From Giesbergeria sp. (GTDB lineage: Bacteria; Pseudomonadota; Gammaproteobacteria; Burkholderiales; Burkholderiaceae_C): DNA of 47,248 nt. Shown here piece after piece: positions 1 through 42,000 of the stretch. Numbering within the stretch: the stretch's first letter is position 1; each line of letters starts with the position of its first letter. Under the pieces are notes generated by a model. That model was not told the DNA's origin and made no database searches. It worked only from the letters and a program-made list of their open reading frames with translations. The translations under genes and the position numbers were made by a program. The stretch is taken from positions 1 to 47,248 of the forward strand of contig JAGNYI010000022.1 of NCBI GenBank assembly GCA_017985015.1, written 5' to 3'.

Positions 1-457
1 AGATGTCTTCGGGCCATGCAGGCTGGCCCATCTGGCGCGAAGCCAGTTGCGCTGCGCGGGCCAGCAAAGGCGGGTCGGTCAGCGAGCGCAGGGAAAAGCT
101 CAATGCGTCGCTGTCGGCGCCCGCGCCGAACGAGGCGCCCAAGTCGGCCCAGGCTTCGCCCAAGGCGTTCTCGTCGATGGCCGGGGCATCGCCCACAGCG
201 CGCACCCCCTTGGTGATCATGGTGGCCGCCGCGCTGGCCAGCCCGGCCTCGCGCGGCGGATCGCGCCGGCTGCCGGCGTCGAAATCAATCTGCACATCCA
301 CCATGGGCAGCGCCGGGCTTTGCACCAGCCAGACCTGCGCGCCGCTGGGCTCCGCCCAGTGCTCGATGGGCAGCAAGGCCCAGGCAGATTGTGAGTAAAA
401 AACCACTCCAGCGCTTATTACACAAGCGCGAGCAGCTACTTTTTTAATAGCGTTCAT
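1..457 (-). CDS. M16 family peptidase-like subunit lacking the zinc motif (partial, 3' end outside window)
   Basis: About 152 N-terminal residues are visible; the gene runs off the left edge. It starts MNAIKKVAARACVISAGVV, a signal peptide with an Ala-Trp-Ala end, followed by an M16 (pitrilysin/insulinase) N-terminal fold: a stretch reading PMVDVQIDFDAGSRRD and then EAGLASAAATMITKG. In active M16 enzymes the last segment carries HxxEH; here the aligned residues are SAAAT, so this chain should not bind zinc. It lies 27 bp downstream of a full M16 gene that does have HVLEH, which fits the common arrangement of an active and an inactive M16 subunit working together, probably in the periplasm. 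The signal peptide coincides with a dispersed 57-bp repeat (395-451). Family call is firm; substrate unknown. Confidence 0.85.
   Translation of the reverse strand, partial: MNAIKKVAARACVISAGVVFYSQSAWALLPIEHWAEPSGAQVWLVQSPALPMVDVQIDFDAGSRRDPPREAGLASAAATMITKGVRAVGDAPAIDENALGEAWADLGASFGAGADSDALSFSLRSLTDPPLLARAAQLASRQMGQPAWPEDI
395..451 (-). repeat. 57-bp two-stem dispersed repeat, copy 1 (inside signal peptide)
   Basis: Minus-strand copy of a 57-bp repeat seen seven times in this window. Shared blocks are GCTAT at position 1, TAGCT at about 14-18 and AAGCGCT at about 36-42. It aligns without gaps to the copy at 24012-24234 (with its insertion removed) at 42 of 57 positions by my count. Here it is translated as codons 3-21 of the partial M16 gene. 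Confidence 0.75.
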
Positions 458-6741: not shown

Positions 6742-6798
6742 ACTATTGTATTTATAGCTACTAGCCCAATACCATCAAGCGATAGCCCGTACTTTTAA
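6742..6798 (+). repeat. 57-bp dispersed repeat, copy 2 (cutA-rpoH intergenic)
   Basis: Diverged copy lying between the starts of cutA and rpoH. It keeps TATAGCT and AAGCG in register with the other copies, over 57 positions without gaps, but has lost much of the second stem. Confidence 0.5.
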
Positions 6799-10085: not shown

Positions 10086-10697
10086 TTATTTCGCCTCTTT
10101 CAGCAGACTGCGCACATCTGCCGCCACCGCCTCCGGGCCGCTGCCATAGCGGCTGTAGACGCGCAGTCGACCCGCAGGGTCAAAAATATAGCTGCCCGCC
10201 GAATGGTCCATGGTGTAGCTGGTGGGCGTCTGGCCGTCGACCTTCTTGAAGTAGATCTTGAAGTCTTTGGCAATGGCCGTGGTCTGCACGTCGTCGCCAC
10301 GCAGCGCGACGAAGCTGGGATCGAAATTGGCCATGTAGGCCTTGAGCAGCTCAGGCGTATCGCGCGCTGGATCGACGGTAACGAACACCGCTTGCAAGCG
10401 CTCGCCATCGGTGCCCAGCATCTGCTTGACCTGCGCGAGCTCCTGCATGGTGGTCGGGCAAACGTCCGGACACTGGGTATAACCAAAGAACACCACCACC
10501 ACCTTGCCAGCGAAATCCTTGAGACTGCGCAGCTTGCCATCCTGGTCGGGCAAAGCGAAGTCGCGCGCGTACTCAGCGCCAGTGATGTCCACGCCGCGAA
10601 ACTCTGGCGCAGACTTGGAACATGAAGCCAACAGGCCTCCAGCGCCTATGGATAAAGCGCTGACAGCTATCGATTGAAGAGCAGTTCTACGGAGCAT
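10086..10697 (-). CDS. SCO1/SenC family copper chaperone lipoprotein
   Basis: 203 residues. Thioredoxin-fold protein that helps deliver copper to the CuA site of cytochrome oxidase. The copper-binding CPDVC motif follows VVVVFFGYTQ, and the distal histidine lies in MDHSAGSYIFDP. The N-terminus MLRRTALQSIAVSALS ends in a lipobox LLASC, so it should be a membrane-anchored lipoprotein. Last gene of the minus-strand ctaA-ctaB series, 7 bp after the ctaB stop; a longer in-frame start would overlap ctaB. Codons 6-24, most of the signal peptide, coincide with a 57-bp dispersed repeat copy (10626-10682). Confidence 0.94.
   Translation of the reverse strand: MLRRTALQSIAVSALSIGAGGLLASCSKSAPEFRGVDITGAEYARDFALPDQDGKLRSLKDFAGKVVVVFFGYTQCPDVCPTTMQELAQVKQMLGTDGERLQAVFVTVDPARDTPELLKAYMANFDPSFVALRGDDVQTTAIAKDFKIYFKKVDGQTPTSYTMDHSAGSYIFDPAGRLRVYSRYGSGPEAVAADVRSLLKEAK
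10626..10682 (-). repeat. 57-bp dispersed repeat, copy 3 (inside SCO signal peptide)
   Basis: In register with the other copies over 57 positions with no gap. GATAGCT, CAGCGCTT, GCGCTGGAG and GGCCT are the retained blocks. It is translated in the same frame as copy 1, giving Ala-x-x-x-Ile-Ala-x-Ser-Ala in both signal peptides. Confidence 0.65.
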
Positions 10698-24011: not shown

Positions 24012-24234
24012 GTAAAAAAGGCCTCTAGGGATGGCCTGCATAACTCCCTGCGGTCTGTGATAGCGCGGCCTCGGGCGGTCTACTGCGTTGCTTTTTTTGC
24101 CAATAGCTGGGCTATTGGCTGCAAAAAGACGCCTTGTAGCCCATCCCGATCCGCACTATCACCGCCTCGCGAGGGTTATGCAGGACATCCCTAGCGCTTA
24201 CTACATAAGCATAATAAGCTATCTTTTATATAGC
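24012..24234 (-). repeat. 57-bp dispersed repeat, copy 4, interrupted by the 170-bp element
   Basis: Left part is 24012-24028, right part 24195-24234; joining them with a single CTAG restores a complete 57-bp repeat that aligns without gaps to copy 1 at 42 of 57 positions. Both stems are intact in the restored sequence (GCTATATAAAAGATAGC and CGCTTACTACATAAGC). Confidence 0.8.
24025..24194. mobile_element. 170-bp palindromic MITE-like element, copy A
   Basis: Bounded by CTAG at 24025-24028 and 24191-24194. The first 20 bases and the reverse complement of the last 20 agree at 19 positions (GGATGGCCTGCATAAC against GGATGTCCTGCATAAC inside the CTAGs). The centre is a perfect GCCAATAGC-TGG-GCTATTGGC hairpin at 24099-24119, exactly mid-element, so nearly the whole unit can pair as one long stem. 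It contains no coding capacity. It splits a 57-bp repeat precisely at CTAG, which identifies CTAG as a duplicated 4-bp target. A four-base CTAG target suits IS5-family transposases, which is inference. Confidence 0.85.
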
Positions 24235-24999: not shown

Positions 25000-26895
25000 A
25001 TGTCACACGCCCCTGCCTGGCTTAGTTACGCCTTTCTCTACCTTGCTGCGGCCGTGCTCACCGTGCCGGTGGCGCGCGCTTTGGGGCTGGGCGCCATCAT
25101 TGGCTACCTGGCGGCCGGCATTGCCATCGGGCCCTGGGGTTTTGGCTGGGTGAGCAATGTGCAGGACATCCTGCATTTCGCCGAATTTGGCGTGGTGCTG
25201 ATGCTGTTTCTCGTCGGCCTGGAGCTGCAGCCCACACGCTTGTGGAGCCTGCGTCGGCCGATCTTTGGACTGGGGAGTGCGCAGGTCCTGGGCTGCGCCC
25301 TGCTGCTGTGCGCCGCCGCCTTGTTGGCCGGATTTTCCTGGCGCGTGGCGCTGGTGGGCAGCCTGGGGCTGGCGCTGTCGTCCACCGCCATTGCGCTGCA
25401 GTCGCTGGGCGAACGCAACCTGCTGCGTACCAGCAGTGGCGAATCAGCGTTTTCCATCTTGCTCTACCAGGACATTGCCGCCATCCCCATCCTGGCGCTC
25501 GTGGCGGTGCTGGGCACGGCCAGTGCAACGGGGGCGGCCCACACACCGGGCGCCGCGGCATTCGAAGCCCTCAAGATCGTCGGCGTGATCGCCGCCATCA
25601 TCCTCGGTGGTCGCTTGCTGCTGCGCCCGTTGCTGCGCTGGATTGCGCGCAGCCGCACCCCCGAGATCTTTACCGCAGCAGCGCTGCTGCTGGTGGTCGG
25701 CATTGCCTACCTGATGGTGCTGGTCGGCCTGTCGATGGCGCTGGGGGCTTTTTTGGCCGGTGTGCTGCTGGCCGAGAGCGAGTTCCGGCGCGAGCTGGAG
25801 ACCGATATCGAGCCTTTCAAGGGCCTGCTGCTGGGCCTGTTCTTCATTGCCGTGGGCATGAGCATCGACTTTGGCGCCATGCTGCGCGCGCCGCTCATGG
25901 TGGCCTTGCTGCTCACCGGCTTTGTGGCGATCAAGAGCGTGGTGATTTATGCACTGGCGCGGGCCGTGAAAATTCCGTACCAGGAGCGCCCGGTGTTCAC
26001 GCTGCTGCTGGCGCAGGGCGGGGAATTTGCCTTTGTGGTGTTCCAGGCCGCAGCGGGTGCAGGTGCGCTGCCGGGCGAGATGGCCTCGCTGCTGATCGGC
26101 GCCGTCGCACTGTCGATGCTGTGCACGCCGCTGCTCCTGCTGCTGATCGATCGCTTCGTGCTGCCGCGCTTTGCCGCCACGCTGCGCGCGCCTCCCGAAG
26201 GCGAGATCTCCGAGCCGCAAACGGCGCCGGTGCTGATTGCCGGGTTTGGCCGCTACGGGCAAATCGTGGCGCGCGTGCTGCTGGCCCAGGGCATTCCGGC
26301 CACGGTGCTGGACCACAGCGTGGACATCCTGGAAGTAGCGCGCACCTTTGGCTACCGCGTGTTCTATGGCGACGCTACGCGCCTGGACCTGCTGCGCATG
26401 GCGGGCGCCGCGCAGGCGCGGGTGCTGGTGCTGGCGGTCGATGCGCCCGGTCCCTCGCTCAAGATCGCAGCGCTGGCGCGCGAACACTTCCCGCACCTGA
26501 AAATCGTCGCACGCGCCCGGGACCTCACGCACTGGAACGATTTGCGCGACCTGGGCGTCACCCAGGTGCAGCGCGAACTGTTCGAATCCAGCCTGCTGAG
26601 CGCGCGCAGCGTGCTGGAACACATGGGCCTGCAAGAGAGCGAGACCGAGGCGCTGCTGGCGCGCTTTCGCCAGCACAACATTGCGCTGGCCGACCGCATG
26701 TACCCGCACCACAAGGACCAGGCCCGCATGATCGCCGTGGCCCGCGAAGGCCGCAGCCAGCTGGCTGAGCAGCTGGCCAAGGAACGGGAAGAGCGCACCC
26801 TGCGCAGCGCGGCGGGCATGGGCTACCCGGGCTACGGGGAGAACGAGCAAGCCCCTGGCCGGGAAGACGCTTACGAACTGAAAAATACAAGATAA
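25000..26895 (+). CDS. KefB/KefC-type monovalent cation:proton antiporter (CPA2)
   Basis: 631 residues. About twelve membrane helices with CPA2 features: GYLAAGIAIGPWGFG, FAEFGVVLMLFLVGLELQP, LALSSTAIALQSLGERN and LYQDIAAIP. The cytosolic RCK_N domain begins PVLIAGFGRYGQIVARVLL and includes FYGDATRLDLLRMAGAAQA. Likely an electrophile- or redox-gated potassium efflux system. No KefF/KefG ancillary gene is next to it. The chosen ATG aligns with KefC; an in-frame ATG 19 codons upstream would add a non-membrane extension. The C-terminal stop codon lies in a 57-bp repeat. Confidence 0.92.
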   Translation: MSHAPAWLSYAFLYLAAAVLTVPVARALGLGAIIGYLAAGIAIGPWGFGWVSNVQDILHFAEFGVVLMLFLVGLELQPTRLWSLRRPIFGLGSAQVLGCALLLCAAALLAGFSWRVALVGSLGLALSSTAIALQSLGERNLLRTSSGESAFSILLYQDIAAIPILALVAVLGTASATGAAHTPGAAAFEALKIVGVIAAIILGGRLLLRPLLRWIARSRTPEIFTAAALLLVVGIAYLMVLVGLSMALGAFLAGVLLAESEFRRELETDIEPFKGLLLGLFFIAVGMSIDFGAMLRAPLMVALLLTGFVAIKSVVIYALARAVKIPYQERPVFTLLLAQGGEFAFVVFQAAAGAGALPGEMASLLIGAVALSMLCTPLLLLLIDRFVLPRFAATLRAPPEGEISEPQTAPVLIAGFGRYGQIVARVLLAQGIPATVLDHSVDILEVARTFGYRVFYGDATRLDLLRMAGAAQARVLVLAVDAPGPSLKIAALAREHFPHLKIVARARDLTHWNDLRDLGVTQVQRELFESSLLSARSVLEHMGLQESETEALLARFRQHNIALADRMYPHHKDQARMIAVAREGRSQLAEQLAKEREERTLRSAAGMGYPGYGENEQAPGREDAYELKNTR

Positions 26896-26947
26896 AACCG
26901 GCTCTAGCGCTTTATCTATAAGCCTATATAGCTACTTTTTCAATAGC
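26891..26947 (-). repeat. 57-bp dispersed repeat, copy 5
   Basis: Minus-strand copy that covers the antiporter stop codon (26893-26895) and continues into the convergent intergenic space. GCTATTGAAAAAGTAGC and AAAGCGCTAGAG blocks are in register. Confidence 0.75.
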
Positions 26948-31986: not shown

Positions 31987-32043
31987 GCTCTGTTTTTGAT
32001 AGCTTACAACGCTTTATAGATAAGCGATGGAGGCATATTTGAC
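31987..32043 (+). repeat. 57-bp dispersed repeat, copy 6
   Basis: Plus-strand copy beginning one base after the DUF1841 stop. GATAGCT, CGCTTTA, ATAAGCG and GGAGGC are retained in register. Confidence 0.7.
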
Positions 32044-33982: not shown

Positions 33983-34585
33983 ATGGCTTTTGTAGAACCG
34001 GTCACTTTGCGAGAACGCGGCGTGCGCCTGGAGCCCCTGGCCCTGGCGCACGAAGATGGCTTGCGCGCGGCCGCCGCCGACGGTGAATTGTGGAAGCTGC
34101 GCGTCACCTCGGTGCCCGAGCCGCAGGACACCCGCGCCTACATCGAAACCGCGCTGACGATGCGCGCCGACGGCAACCGCTTTGCCTTTGCCATATTCGA
34201 CGACGCTACCGGCCAGGTGCTGGGCAGCACCAGCTACCACGACATCCTCCCGGCGGTGAAACGCGTCGAGATTGGCTACACCTGGTACCGCAAGAGCGTG
34301 CAGCGCAGCCACGTCAACACCACCTGCAAACTGCTGATGATGGGCCACGCGTTTGACGGCCTGGGCTGCCACGTGGTGGGCTGGCGCACCGACAACTTCA
34401 ACTTCGCCTCGCAGCGCGCCATCGAGCGCCTGGGCGCGAGGAAGGACGGCGTCATCCGCGGCAACGCACTGCGCCGCGACGGCACCATCCGCGACACCGT
34501 GATGTACAGCCTGCGCGCCGGTGAATGGCCCGAAGCGCGCGCTCAATTGCTATACCTTTTAGAGCTGCATGCGCATACTGCATAA
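33983..34585 (+). CDS. GNAT acetyltransferase, RimJ/RimL-like
   Basis: 200 residues. Typical of the RimJ/RimL group: VRLEPLALAHEDGLRAA, GSTSYHDILPAVKRVEIGYTWY and the cofactor region RSHVNTTCKLLMMGHAFDGLG followed by NFASQRAIERLGARKDGV. Likely acetylates a protein N-terminus or small molecule. The last dozen residues (LLYLLELHAHTA and stop) are encoded by a 57-bp repeat copy, so the natural C-terminus has been replaced or extended. Confidence 0.88.
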   Translation: MAFVEPVTLRERGVRLEPLALAHEDGLRAAAADGELWKLRVTSVPEPQDTRAYIETALTMRADGNRFAFAIFDDATGQVLGSTSYHDILPAVKRVEIGYTWYRKSVQRSHVNTTCKLLMMGHAFDGLGCHVVGWRTDNFNFASQRAIERLGARKDGVIRGNALRRDGTIRDTVMYSLRAGEWPEARAQLLYLLELHAHTA

Positions 34586-34605
34586 GCGCTAGCAGCCAAA
34601 AACAT
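34549..34605 (+). repeat. 57-bp dispersed repeat, copy 7 (acetyltransferase C-terminus)
   Basis: Plus-strand copy overlapping the end of the acetyltransferase gene; GCTAT, GAGCTGC, CATAAGCGCTAGC blocks align in register. It supplies the final twelve codons and the stop. Confidence 0.7.
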
Positions 34606-41798: not shown

Positions 41799-41830
41799 AA
41801 ATCCGTCCGAACCTTCCTTGAACACAACCT

Positions 41831-42000
41831 CTAGGGATGGCCTGCATAACTCCCTGCGGTCTGTGATAGCTCGGCCTCGGGCGGTCTACTGCGTTGCTCT
41901 TTTTGCCAATAGCTGGGCTATTGGCTGCAAAAAGACGCCTTGTAGTCCATCCCGATCCGCACCATCACCGCCTCGCGAGGGTGATGCAGGACATCCCTAG
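41831..42000. mobile_element. 170-bp palindromic MITE-like element, copy B
   Basis: Aligns with copy A over all 170 bases with five substitutions and no indel. CTAG at each end (41831-41834 and 41997-42000). Four of the five differences fall on positions that pair in copy A's long stem and none is compensated, so copy B has a weaker hairpin. It lies between the stops of tamB and the convergent DUF1330 gene. Confidence 0.85.

What the first reader, a model, noticed from the sequence alone, without database searches (positions are those of the whole stretch)
10626..10682. Second, independent signal peptide built from the same repeat in the same frame (SCO lipoprotein)
Codons 6-24 of the SCO gene align without gaps to the repeat, and the reading frame is the same as in the M16 gene (Ala-x-x-x-Ile/Val-Ala-x-x-Ala in both). 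Two unrelated exported proteins sharing this in one 47-kb window suggests the repeat is a recurrent source of signal sequences.
Basis: partly seen in the sequence, partly recalled or inferred. Interest (0 to 1): 0.75.

Follow-up and report, generated by a model that had tools for sequence, protein, structure and literature searches.

The report
DNA element written over signal-peptide codons
The start of this copper-chaperone gene is a genuine copy of a 54-base DNA element found hundreds of times in related bacteria, apparently written over an existing signal peptide and kept at the DNA level, so it did not simply create the peptide.

Summary
A profile built from 29 copies elsewhere in the genome, none from the window, hits the SCO signal peptide ungapped at E=1.4e-7. 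None of 5000 synonymous recodings of the same peptide reaches its score. A third in-frame case exists, the GspD secretin, but only 3 of 250 signal-peptide-like genes match. Outside the window the excess is not significant, so "recurrent source of signal peptides" is weak.

The evidence points elsewhere. The element has about 100 copies per Mb, mostly just after stop codons and spaced more evenly than chance. It also lies inside conserved enzymes without insertion (TrpF, LpxB, PurK). SCO orthologues lacking it mostly have a signal peptide of the same length, so it seems to overlay an existing one. At SCO, M16, GspD and TrpF its presence tracks genome-wide copy number. A repeat-free clade nested inside the genus lacks it at all three sites tested. 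This suggests a DNA motif maintained in trans, resembling DNA uptake sequences, but long, palindromic and with its factor unknown.

The parts
10629..10682 (-). 54-bp element copy, codons 6-23 of the SCO gene (signal peptide)
   Evidence: independent profile E=1.4e-7, ungapped; same codons in many orthologues
10086..10697 (-). SCO1/SenC lipoprotein gene, 203 aa, lipobox Cys at residue 26
   Evidence: PF02630 E=4.2e-46; translation
398..451 (-). element copy in the signal peptide of the M16-like gene
   Evidence: E=2.9e-10; 21 of 30 orthologues examined match at E<1e-6
2..457 (-). 5' part of the M16-like gene (cut by the contig end); the full orthologue L182 matches only the M16 C-terminal (inactive) domain at E<=0.001
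   Evidence: PF05193 in L182; the 152-aa window part alone gave no Pfam match
24181..24234 (-). intergenic element copy
   Evidence: E=1.1e-6; syntenic in G012 and G004
26894..26947 (-). element copy at and after a stop codon
   Evidence: E=9.7e-6; syntenic in G007 and G004
31987..32040 (+). intergenic element copy just after a stop codon
   Evidence: E=1.3e-5; syntenic in G012
34549..34602 (+). element copy across the 3' end of a gene and the gap to the next gene
   Evidence: E=1.2e-7; syntenic in G012, G007 and G004
6743..6796 (+). weak, probably decayed seventh copy
   Evidence: E=0.014 over 6743-6765; syntenic 31-bit copy in G004

Best explanation
The SCO signal-peptide DNA is one coding copy of an ancient dispersed DNA element of Comamonadaceae: 54 bp, with a core GCGCTTA-n4/5-TAAGCGC and blocks ATAGCT and AGAGGCC. 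Shown here: copies sit mainly just behind stop codons, are evenly spaced, occur inside several genes without length change, are kept at nucleotide level against codon usage, and follow the genome-wide family in presence and absence. Inferred: a sequence-recognising factor acting in trans biases replacement of homologous alleles toward element-bearing ones (molecular drive, as proposed for DNA uptake sequences), so the element was written over a pre-existing signal peptide, a permissive stretch, and decays to ordinary GC-rich codons when the factor is lost. The frame used there encodes an Ala/Ile-rich peptide (Ile-Ala-x-x-Ala-x-x-Ile-Ser-Ala-Gly), which a signal peptide tolerates. The factor and the process (uptake, conversion or other) are not identified.
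For: 1. Real copy. 2. In place, no insertion: SCO Cys at residue 26 in 30 of 32 orthologues with the element (15 bits or more) and 14 of 21 without; TrpF, LpxB and PurK copies align without gaps to solved homologues. 3. Kept as DNA: at the conserved Ile codon, ATA in 50 of 51 orthologues with full or weak matches and 1 of 9 without, while ATA is 2.3% of Ile codons in the own sample. GC3 of SCO codons 6-25 is 0.15-0.65 in the 32 genomes at 4 copies/Mb or more and 0.60-0.90 in the 12 without a match; the rest of the gene is 0.68-0.99 in both. 4. Tracks the family: Spearman of element density with site score 0.75 SCO (48 genomes), 0.70 M16, 0.87 TrpF, 0.71 GspD (30 each). For M16, TrpF and GspD all 15 genome-site pairs below 2.5/Mb give no match and all 75 from 3.1/Mb up score above 0, lowest 0.2 bits. 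5. Absent together: the repeat-free clade G002/G005/G008 has none at M16, TrpF and GspD and is nested among repeat-bearing genomes. 6. Even spacing: CV 0.70 versus 0.88 for random non-divergent intergenic sites, P=0.001. 7. Nearly confined to chromosomes: 2 of 72,556 plasmids, 0 of 50,697 phages.
Against: No trans factor was found. ComEC is present in 30 of 32 genomes including repeat-free G002 and G005 (absent in G008, 84% complete, and G041), so loss of the element is not loss of that competence gene. Site scores in genes are bimodal and the palindrome half is not enriched by itself (GCGCTTAT 12 versus 9.2 expected after masking), though the left block is modestly (ATAGCT 109 versus 76); a stepwise drive should leave more intermediates. 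Tracking is not perfect: 4 of the 16 genomes at or below 3.2/Mb keep an SCO match of 5.8-17.9 bits. The correlations are not phylogenetically independent; only one nested loss was shown on a tree. AroE (+5 aa) and LeuRS (+6 aa) have small extra length near the site, the LpxB copy is weak (19.9 bits), and some copies seem to lie in linkers, so not all need be in place. Natural uptake cannot be tested here.
Confidence: 0.45

Rival explanations
1. The element is a chromosomal binding site for a DNA-organising or regulatory protein; individual copies, coding ones included, are kept by ordinary selection for even spacing, not by recombination-driven spread. The palindromic core would bind a symmetric dimer.
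For: Palindromic core conserved as sequence without a clear excess of compensatory changes; even spacing; no orientation bias relative to GC skew, 65 of 123; concerted absence.
Against: Conserved positions spread over 54 bp, more than a typical dimer site; placement hugs stop codons (77 of 82 tandem copies from 20 nt before to 60 nt after), which a spacing role does not require; selection strong enough to hold rare codons at many sites is demanding.
Confidence: 0.27
2. A REP/MITE-type mobile element inserted long ago into these genes and was domesticated as signal peptide; later deletions restored length.
For: Dispersed 54-bp palindrome near stop codons; full-length copies rather than a continuum; a precedent for a signal peptide partly formed by a MITE in Yersinia YPO1552 (PMC2229807, passages).
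Against: No length change at SCO, TrpF, LpxB, PurK; the Y1 transposase family PF01797 is in 47 of 49 genomes including repeat-free ones, and the own copy lies over 4 kb from the nearest element listed on that contig; several window copies are positionally conserved in the genus; nucleotide-level upkeep is not explained.
Confidence: 0.2
3. AT-rich rare codons at gene starts (generic 5'-end codon bias) plus Ala/Ile-rich signal peptides mimic the repeat by chance.
For: Signal-peptide 5' ends can be AT-rich in GC-rich genomes (general knowledge).
Against: 0 of 5000 recodings reach the score; the 12 genomes without an SCO match have GC3 0.60-0.90 there; of the other 247 signal-peptide-like genes 2 have an opposite-strand match and the next best scores are below -16 bits.
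Confidence: 0.02
4. The element is a transcribed RNA hairpin (3'-end stabiliser or terminator), and coding copies are by-products.
For: Most copies lie just after stop codons; convergent gaps over-represented, 41, and divergent under-represented, 8. One of five covariation measures (pairs changed on both sides, 9 versus 6.3) is reached by only 16 of 500 shuffles.
Against: The other four measures are reached by 68-123 of 500 shuffles and sliding the partners gives up to 10 such pairs; the left hairpin shows none; no Rfam match at gathering score in the window; orientation relative to flanking tandem genes 46 to 36; nucleotide upkeep inside TrpF or signal peptides is not explained.
Confidence: 0.06

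Closest known systems
DNA uptake sequences (Neisseria DUS, Pasteurellaceae USS)
   Same: Many chromosomal copies, partly inside genes with one orientation favoured, in Pasteurellaceae biased to gene ends (PMC2346458, abstract and passages); conserved as DNA and located in permissive parts of the core genome (PMC2397512, abstract and passages). Here also evenly spaced.
   Different: 54 bp with palindromic core instead of 10-12 bp; about 100 per Mb against almost 1,500 per Neisseria genome; palindrome half not enriched by itself; uptake function unknown.
REP elements / REPINs with RAYT (TnpA-REP) transposases
   Same: Short palindromic dispersed repeat, mostly extragenic, downstream of genes, many copies.
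   Different: Own Y1_Tnp gene is not flanked by the element and the family is present in repeat-free genomes; copies inside conserved coding sequence without insertion; positional conservation of several copies.
Rickettsia palindromic elements (RPE) and other bacterial MITEs fused to ORFs
   Same: Palindromic repeat translated within host proteins; a MITE partly forming a signal peptide is reported for Yersinia YPO1552 (PMC2229807 passages).
   Different: RPEs are described as insertions in host genes; here SCO, TrpF, LpxB and PurK show no length change, and the SCO, M16, GspD and TrpF copies are shared at the same codons by many species.

Membership tests
DNA uptake sequence (DUS/USS) | raises uptake or transformation efficiency of DNA that carries it | not testable with these tools
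   needs an experiment
DNA uptake sequence (DUS/USS) | many chromosomal copies, rare in mobile DNA | tested here: met
   161 copies in 1.59 Mb; 2 of 72,556 plasmids, 0 of 50,697 phages, 0 exact hits in viral contigs
DNA uptake sequence (DUS/USS) | short (about 10-12 bp) motif, over-represented on its own | tested here: not met
   54-bp unit; with full copies masked GCGCTTAT 12 versus 9.2 expected; ATAGCT modestly high, 109 versus 76
DNA uptake sequence (DUS/USS) | spacing more regular than random | tested here: met
   CV 0.70 versus 0.88-0.93, P<=0.001; that this holds for DUS/USS is recalled
REP/RAYT | associated RAYT gene flanked by the repeat | tested here: not met
   own Y1_Tnp at C55:45276-45605, nearest element listed on that contig at C55:50003
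REP/RAYT | 20-40 bp palindrome tagged GTAG or CGTC (title and abstract start of PMC3733652, search listing only) | tested here: inconclusive
   consensus by eye shows no GTAG or CGTC at the end of the palindrome; tags were not searched for formally
RPE / MITE insertion in ORFs | copy present as an insertion lengthening the protein | tested here: not met
   ungapped in TrpF, LpxB, PurK and same SCO signal-peptide length; AroE +5 and LeuRS +6 aa near the site
lipoprotein signal peptide (SCO) | basic n-region, hydrophobic core, lipobox with Cys | tested here: met
   MLRRTALQSIAVSALSIGAGGLLASC, Cys 26; recognised by pattern, no dedicated predictor run

The most novel reading that the evidence does not exclude
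Comamonadaceae carry a new class of trans-maintained genomic DNA signal: a long palindromic element, evenly spaced along the chromosome, that is copied in place onto existing sequence, including signal peptides and conserved enzymes, without insertion, and whose whole population collapses at once when an unknown recognition factor is lost.
Probability: 0.25. Interest if true: 0.92.

Novelty: new variant of a known kind. Interest (0 to 1): 0.72.

Why it matters
If right, a DNA-level signal shapes the amino-acid sequence of exported proteins and core enzymes across a bacterial family, against codon usage. The nested repeat-free clade makes the trans factor findable by comparing gene content, and would allow a direct test of drive versus selection, a long-standing question for uptake sequences.

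Tried and rejected
RNA element: no Rfam hit at gathering score in the window; RNAalifold predicts only 3 pairs; palindrome arms show no clear compensatory excess (one of five measures is high, reached by 16 of 500 shuffles). RAYT as mobiliser: PF01797 is in 47 of 49 genomes regardless of copy number. Loss of competence as the cause of loss: ComEC in 30 of 32, repeat-free G002 and G005 included. Short uptake-like half-site: palindrome half not enriched after masking, left block modestly. Replication-strand polarity: 65 of 123 copies on the G-rich strand; the listing of places in G012 was truncated and was not used. "Same frame is forced by stops" was my first idea (note): the consensus has stops in the other frames of that strand, but real coding copies use another frame as often (8 and 8 of 17), so I dropped it. 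Paper searches for the element's letters and for repeats in the family listed no paper whose title or abstract start suggested it; the library holds open-licence papers only.

Limits: gene calls and signal-peptide calls are my own crude scripts; the profile's training copies were the best pattern matches and some lie in the sampled contigs. Density by pattern, (forward+reverse)/2 per Mb, underestimates copies (58 versus about 101 per Mb in the own genome). SCO: the tool kept the best 80 of 282 relatives; the 48 genomes come from 50 loci given to, 2 of which were not held. M16, TrpF and GspD: only the 30 best loci were examined, of 73, 55 and 46 genomes with a match, so close relatives are over-represented. 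Of 83 copies at E<=1e-3 in the first sample, 81 were gapless and 80 lay within one locus; 70 were given, leaving out SCO, M16, six copies inside genes and two others. The tree was rooted on G031 alone and includes the repeat-bearing part of TrpF. UvrA, CysN, ABC ATPase, MetG, ArgF, AcnA and XseA as names for genes with copies are recalled from sequence, not tested; likewise the identity of L152 (Giesbergeria anulus) with G002 is only suggested by equal size and counts.

Full report
Observation. The SCO1/SenC gene lies on the minus strand at 10086-10697 (PF02630). Its first codons read MLRRTALQSIAVSALSIGAGGLLASC. I built a 54-column profile from 29 copies of the repeat found elsewhere in the same genome, none from the window. 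It matches 10682-10633 without a gap at E=1.4e-7 (26.6 bits) and the M16-like signal peptide at E=2.9e-10; four more window copies reach E<=1e-4 and a seventh is weak (E=0.014). Three dinucleotide shuffles of 819 kb give no hit at E<=1. When the SCO, M16-like and GspD N-termini are recoded 5000 times each with the genome's codon usage, none reaches the real score.

The element. In the own genome (3.37 Mb, 110 contigs) all 150 candidates that the model search scored match, at E<=7.4e-9. In 1.59 Mb taken as stretches plus the window I count 161 copies at E<=1e-3, 101 per Mb: 82 between tandem genes, of which 77 lie from 20 nt before to 60 nt after the upstream stop codon (median 9.5), 41 between convergent genes, 8 between divergent genes, 27 inside called genes, 3 at contig edges. 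Copies are spaced more evenly than random: CV 0.70 versus 0.93 for uniform and 0.88 for random non-divergent intergenic sites (P 0 and 0.001 of 2000 draws). Several window copies are found at syntenic places in relatives. The palindrome shows no clear excess of compensatory changes: of five measures one (pairs changed on both sides, 9 versus 6.3) is reached by 16 of 500 shuffles, the others by 68-123, and the left hairpin shows none. It looks more like conserved DNA sequence than an RNA stem. It is nearly absent from plasmids (2 of 72,556) and absent from phages (0 of 50,697) and, as an exact pattern, from viral contigs.

Signal peptides. Of 1341 genes (1340 called plus the cut M16-like gene), 250 look signal-peptide-like by my crude rule. 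Three carry the element in the same frame and orientation: M16-like, SCO and a third, on contig C29, identified as GspD secretin (PF00263, PF03958, PF21305). Two others carry an opposite-strand match; the next best score is below -16 bits. At the rate inside genes (27 per 1.37 Mb) 0.37 would be expected in signal peptides, P=0.006 for three, but P=0.31 for the one outside the window. So an excess is suggested, not shown.

In place, not inserted. TrpF, LpxB and PurK copies align without gaps to solved homologues (the LpxB copy is weak, 19.9 bits). AroE and LeuRS show 5 and 6 extra residues near the site, not 18. In SCO the lipobox Cys is residue 26 in 30 of 32 orthologues with at least 15 bits, 19 of 27 with 5-15 bits and 14 of 21 with less than 5 (start and Cys chosen by script). 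The signal peptide therefore seems to predate the element there.

Kept as DNA and in trans. I examined the 80 best SCO orthologues from named genomes (best 80 of 282). Where the element is present it sits at the same codons. At the conserved Ile codon ATA is used in 30 of 30, 20 of 21 and 1 of 9 of the three classes, although ATA is 2.3% of Ile codons in the own sample. Across 48 genomes the SCO score follows genome-wide density (Spearman 0.75; 0.75 after removing GC3 of the rest of the gene). Of the 16 genomes at or below 3.2/Mb, 12 have no match and 4 keep one of 5.8-17.9 bits; all 32 at 4/Mb or more score at least 3. The same tracking holds for M16 (0.70), TrpF (0.87) and GspD (0.71) in 30 genomes each. 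There all 15 genome-site pairs below 2.5 copies/Mb give no match and all 75 from 3.1/Mb up score above zero, the lowest 0.2 bits. In a tree of 30 genomes (M16, TrpF, GspD; 1246 columns; rooted on G031) the repeat-free G002, G005, G008 form a clade beside G010 (7/Mb) and G001 (22/Mb), inside repeat-bearing genomes, with supports 0.96-1.0 near it. That clade lacks the element at all three sites in all three genomes. These points are correlated by descent; I showed one nested loss.

Mechanism. Simple insertion does not fit the missing length change. Generic 5'-end codon bias does not fit the orthologues without a match, which use GC-rich codons there (GC3 0.60-0.90). [quoted passage not shown] PMC2346458 reports orientation bias in genes and, in Pasteurellaceae, location bias to gene ends (abstract and passages). 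Against: scores in genes are bimodal, 41 sites at 25 bits or more versus 0.25 in synonymous shuffles with little in between (profile includes some of these copies), the palindrome half is not enriched alone, and no factor was found: PF01797 and ComEC do not discriminate. A binding site kept by selection is the main rival.

Earlier work. A signal peptide partly formed by a MITE is reported for Yersinia YPO1552 (PMC2229807, passages). I found no paper that appeared to describe this element (listings only). The genus is probably Simplicispira: relative G007, of the same genus, has a contig of the same length, 980,535, as Simplicispira hankyongi NZ_QXJC01000003; this is inference.

Noticed in passing
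24022-24194 and 41828-42000: A 173-bp direct repeat, 97% identical, in the window; its first copy overlaps 14 bases of the element copy at 24181.
   Followed up: no
2209-2286: Run of CACCTG hexamers (microsatellite-like array) inside long open reading frames.
   Followed up: no
L061:11640-11841: The called TrpF begins with two identical 28-residue proline/glycine-rich repeats before the normal start of the fold; possibly a wrong start or an unrelated repeat.
   Followed up: no
L293 and L294 (contig C71 37746 and 41174): One 2122-aa gene carries two strong element copies (37.0 and 38.7 bits), both in the frame seen in the signal peptides, in what look like linkers.
   Followed up: partly
G000:C55:45276-45605: A Y1 transposase-family gene (PF01797) occurs in 47 of 49 genomes tested, mostly one copy each, whether or not they carry the element.
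   Followed up: partly
NZ_CP049911.1:107821-107874: A full-length element (83% identical) lies under the annotated cobN on a Diaphorobacter plasmid, one of only two plasmid records with a match.
   Followed up: no
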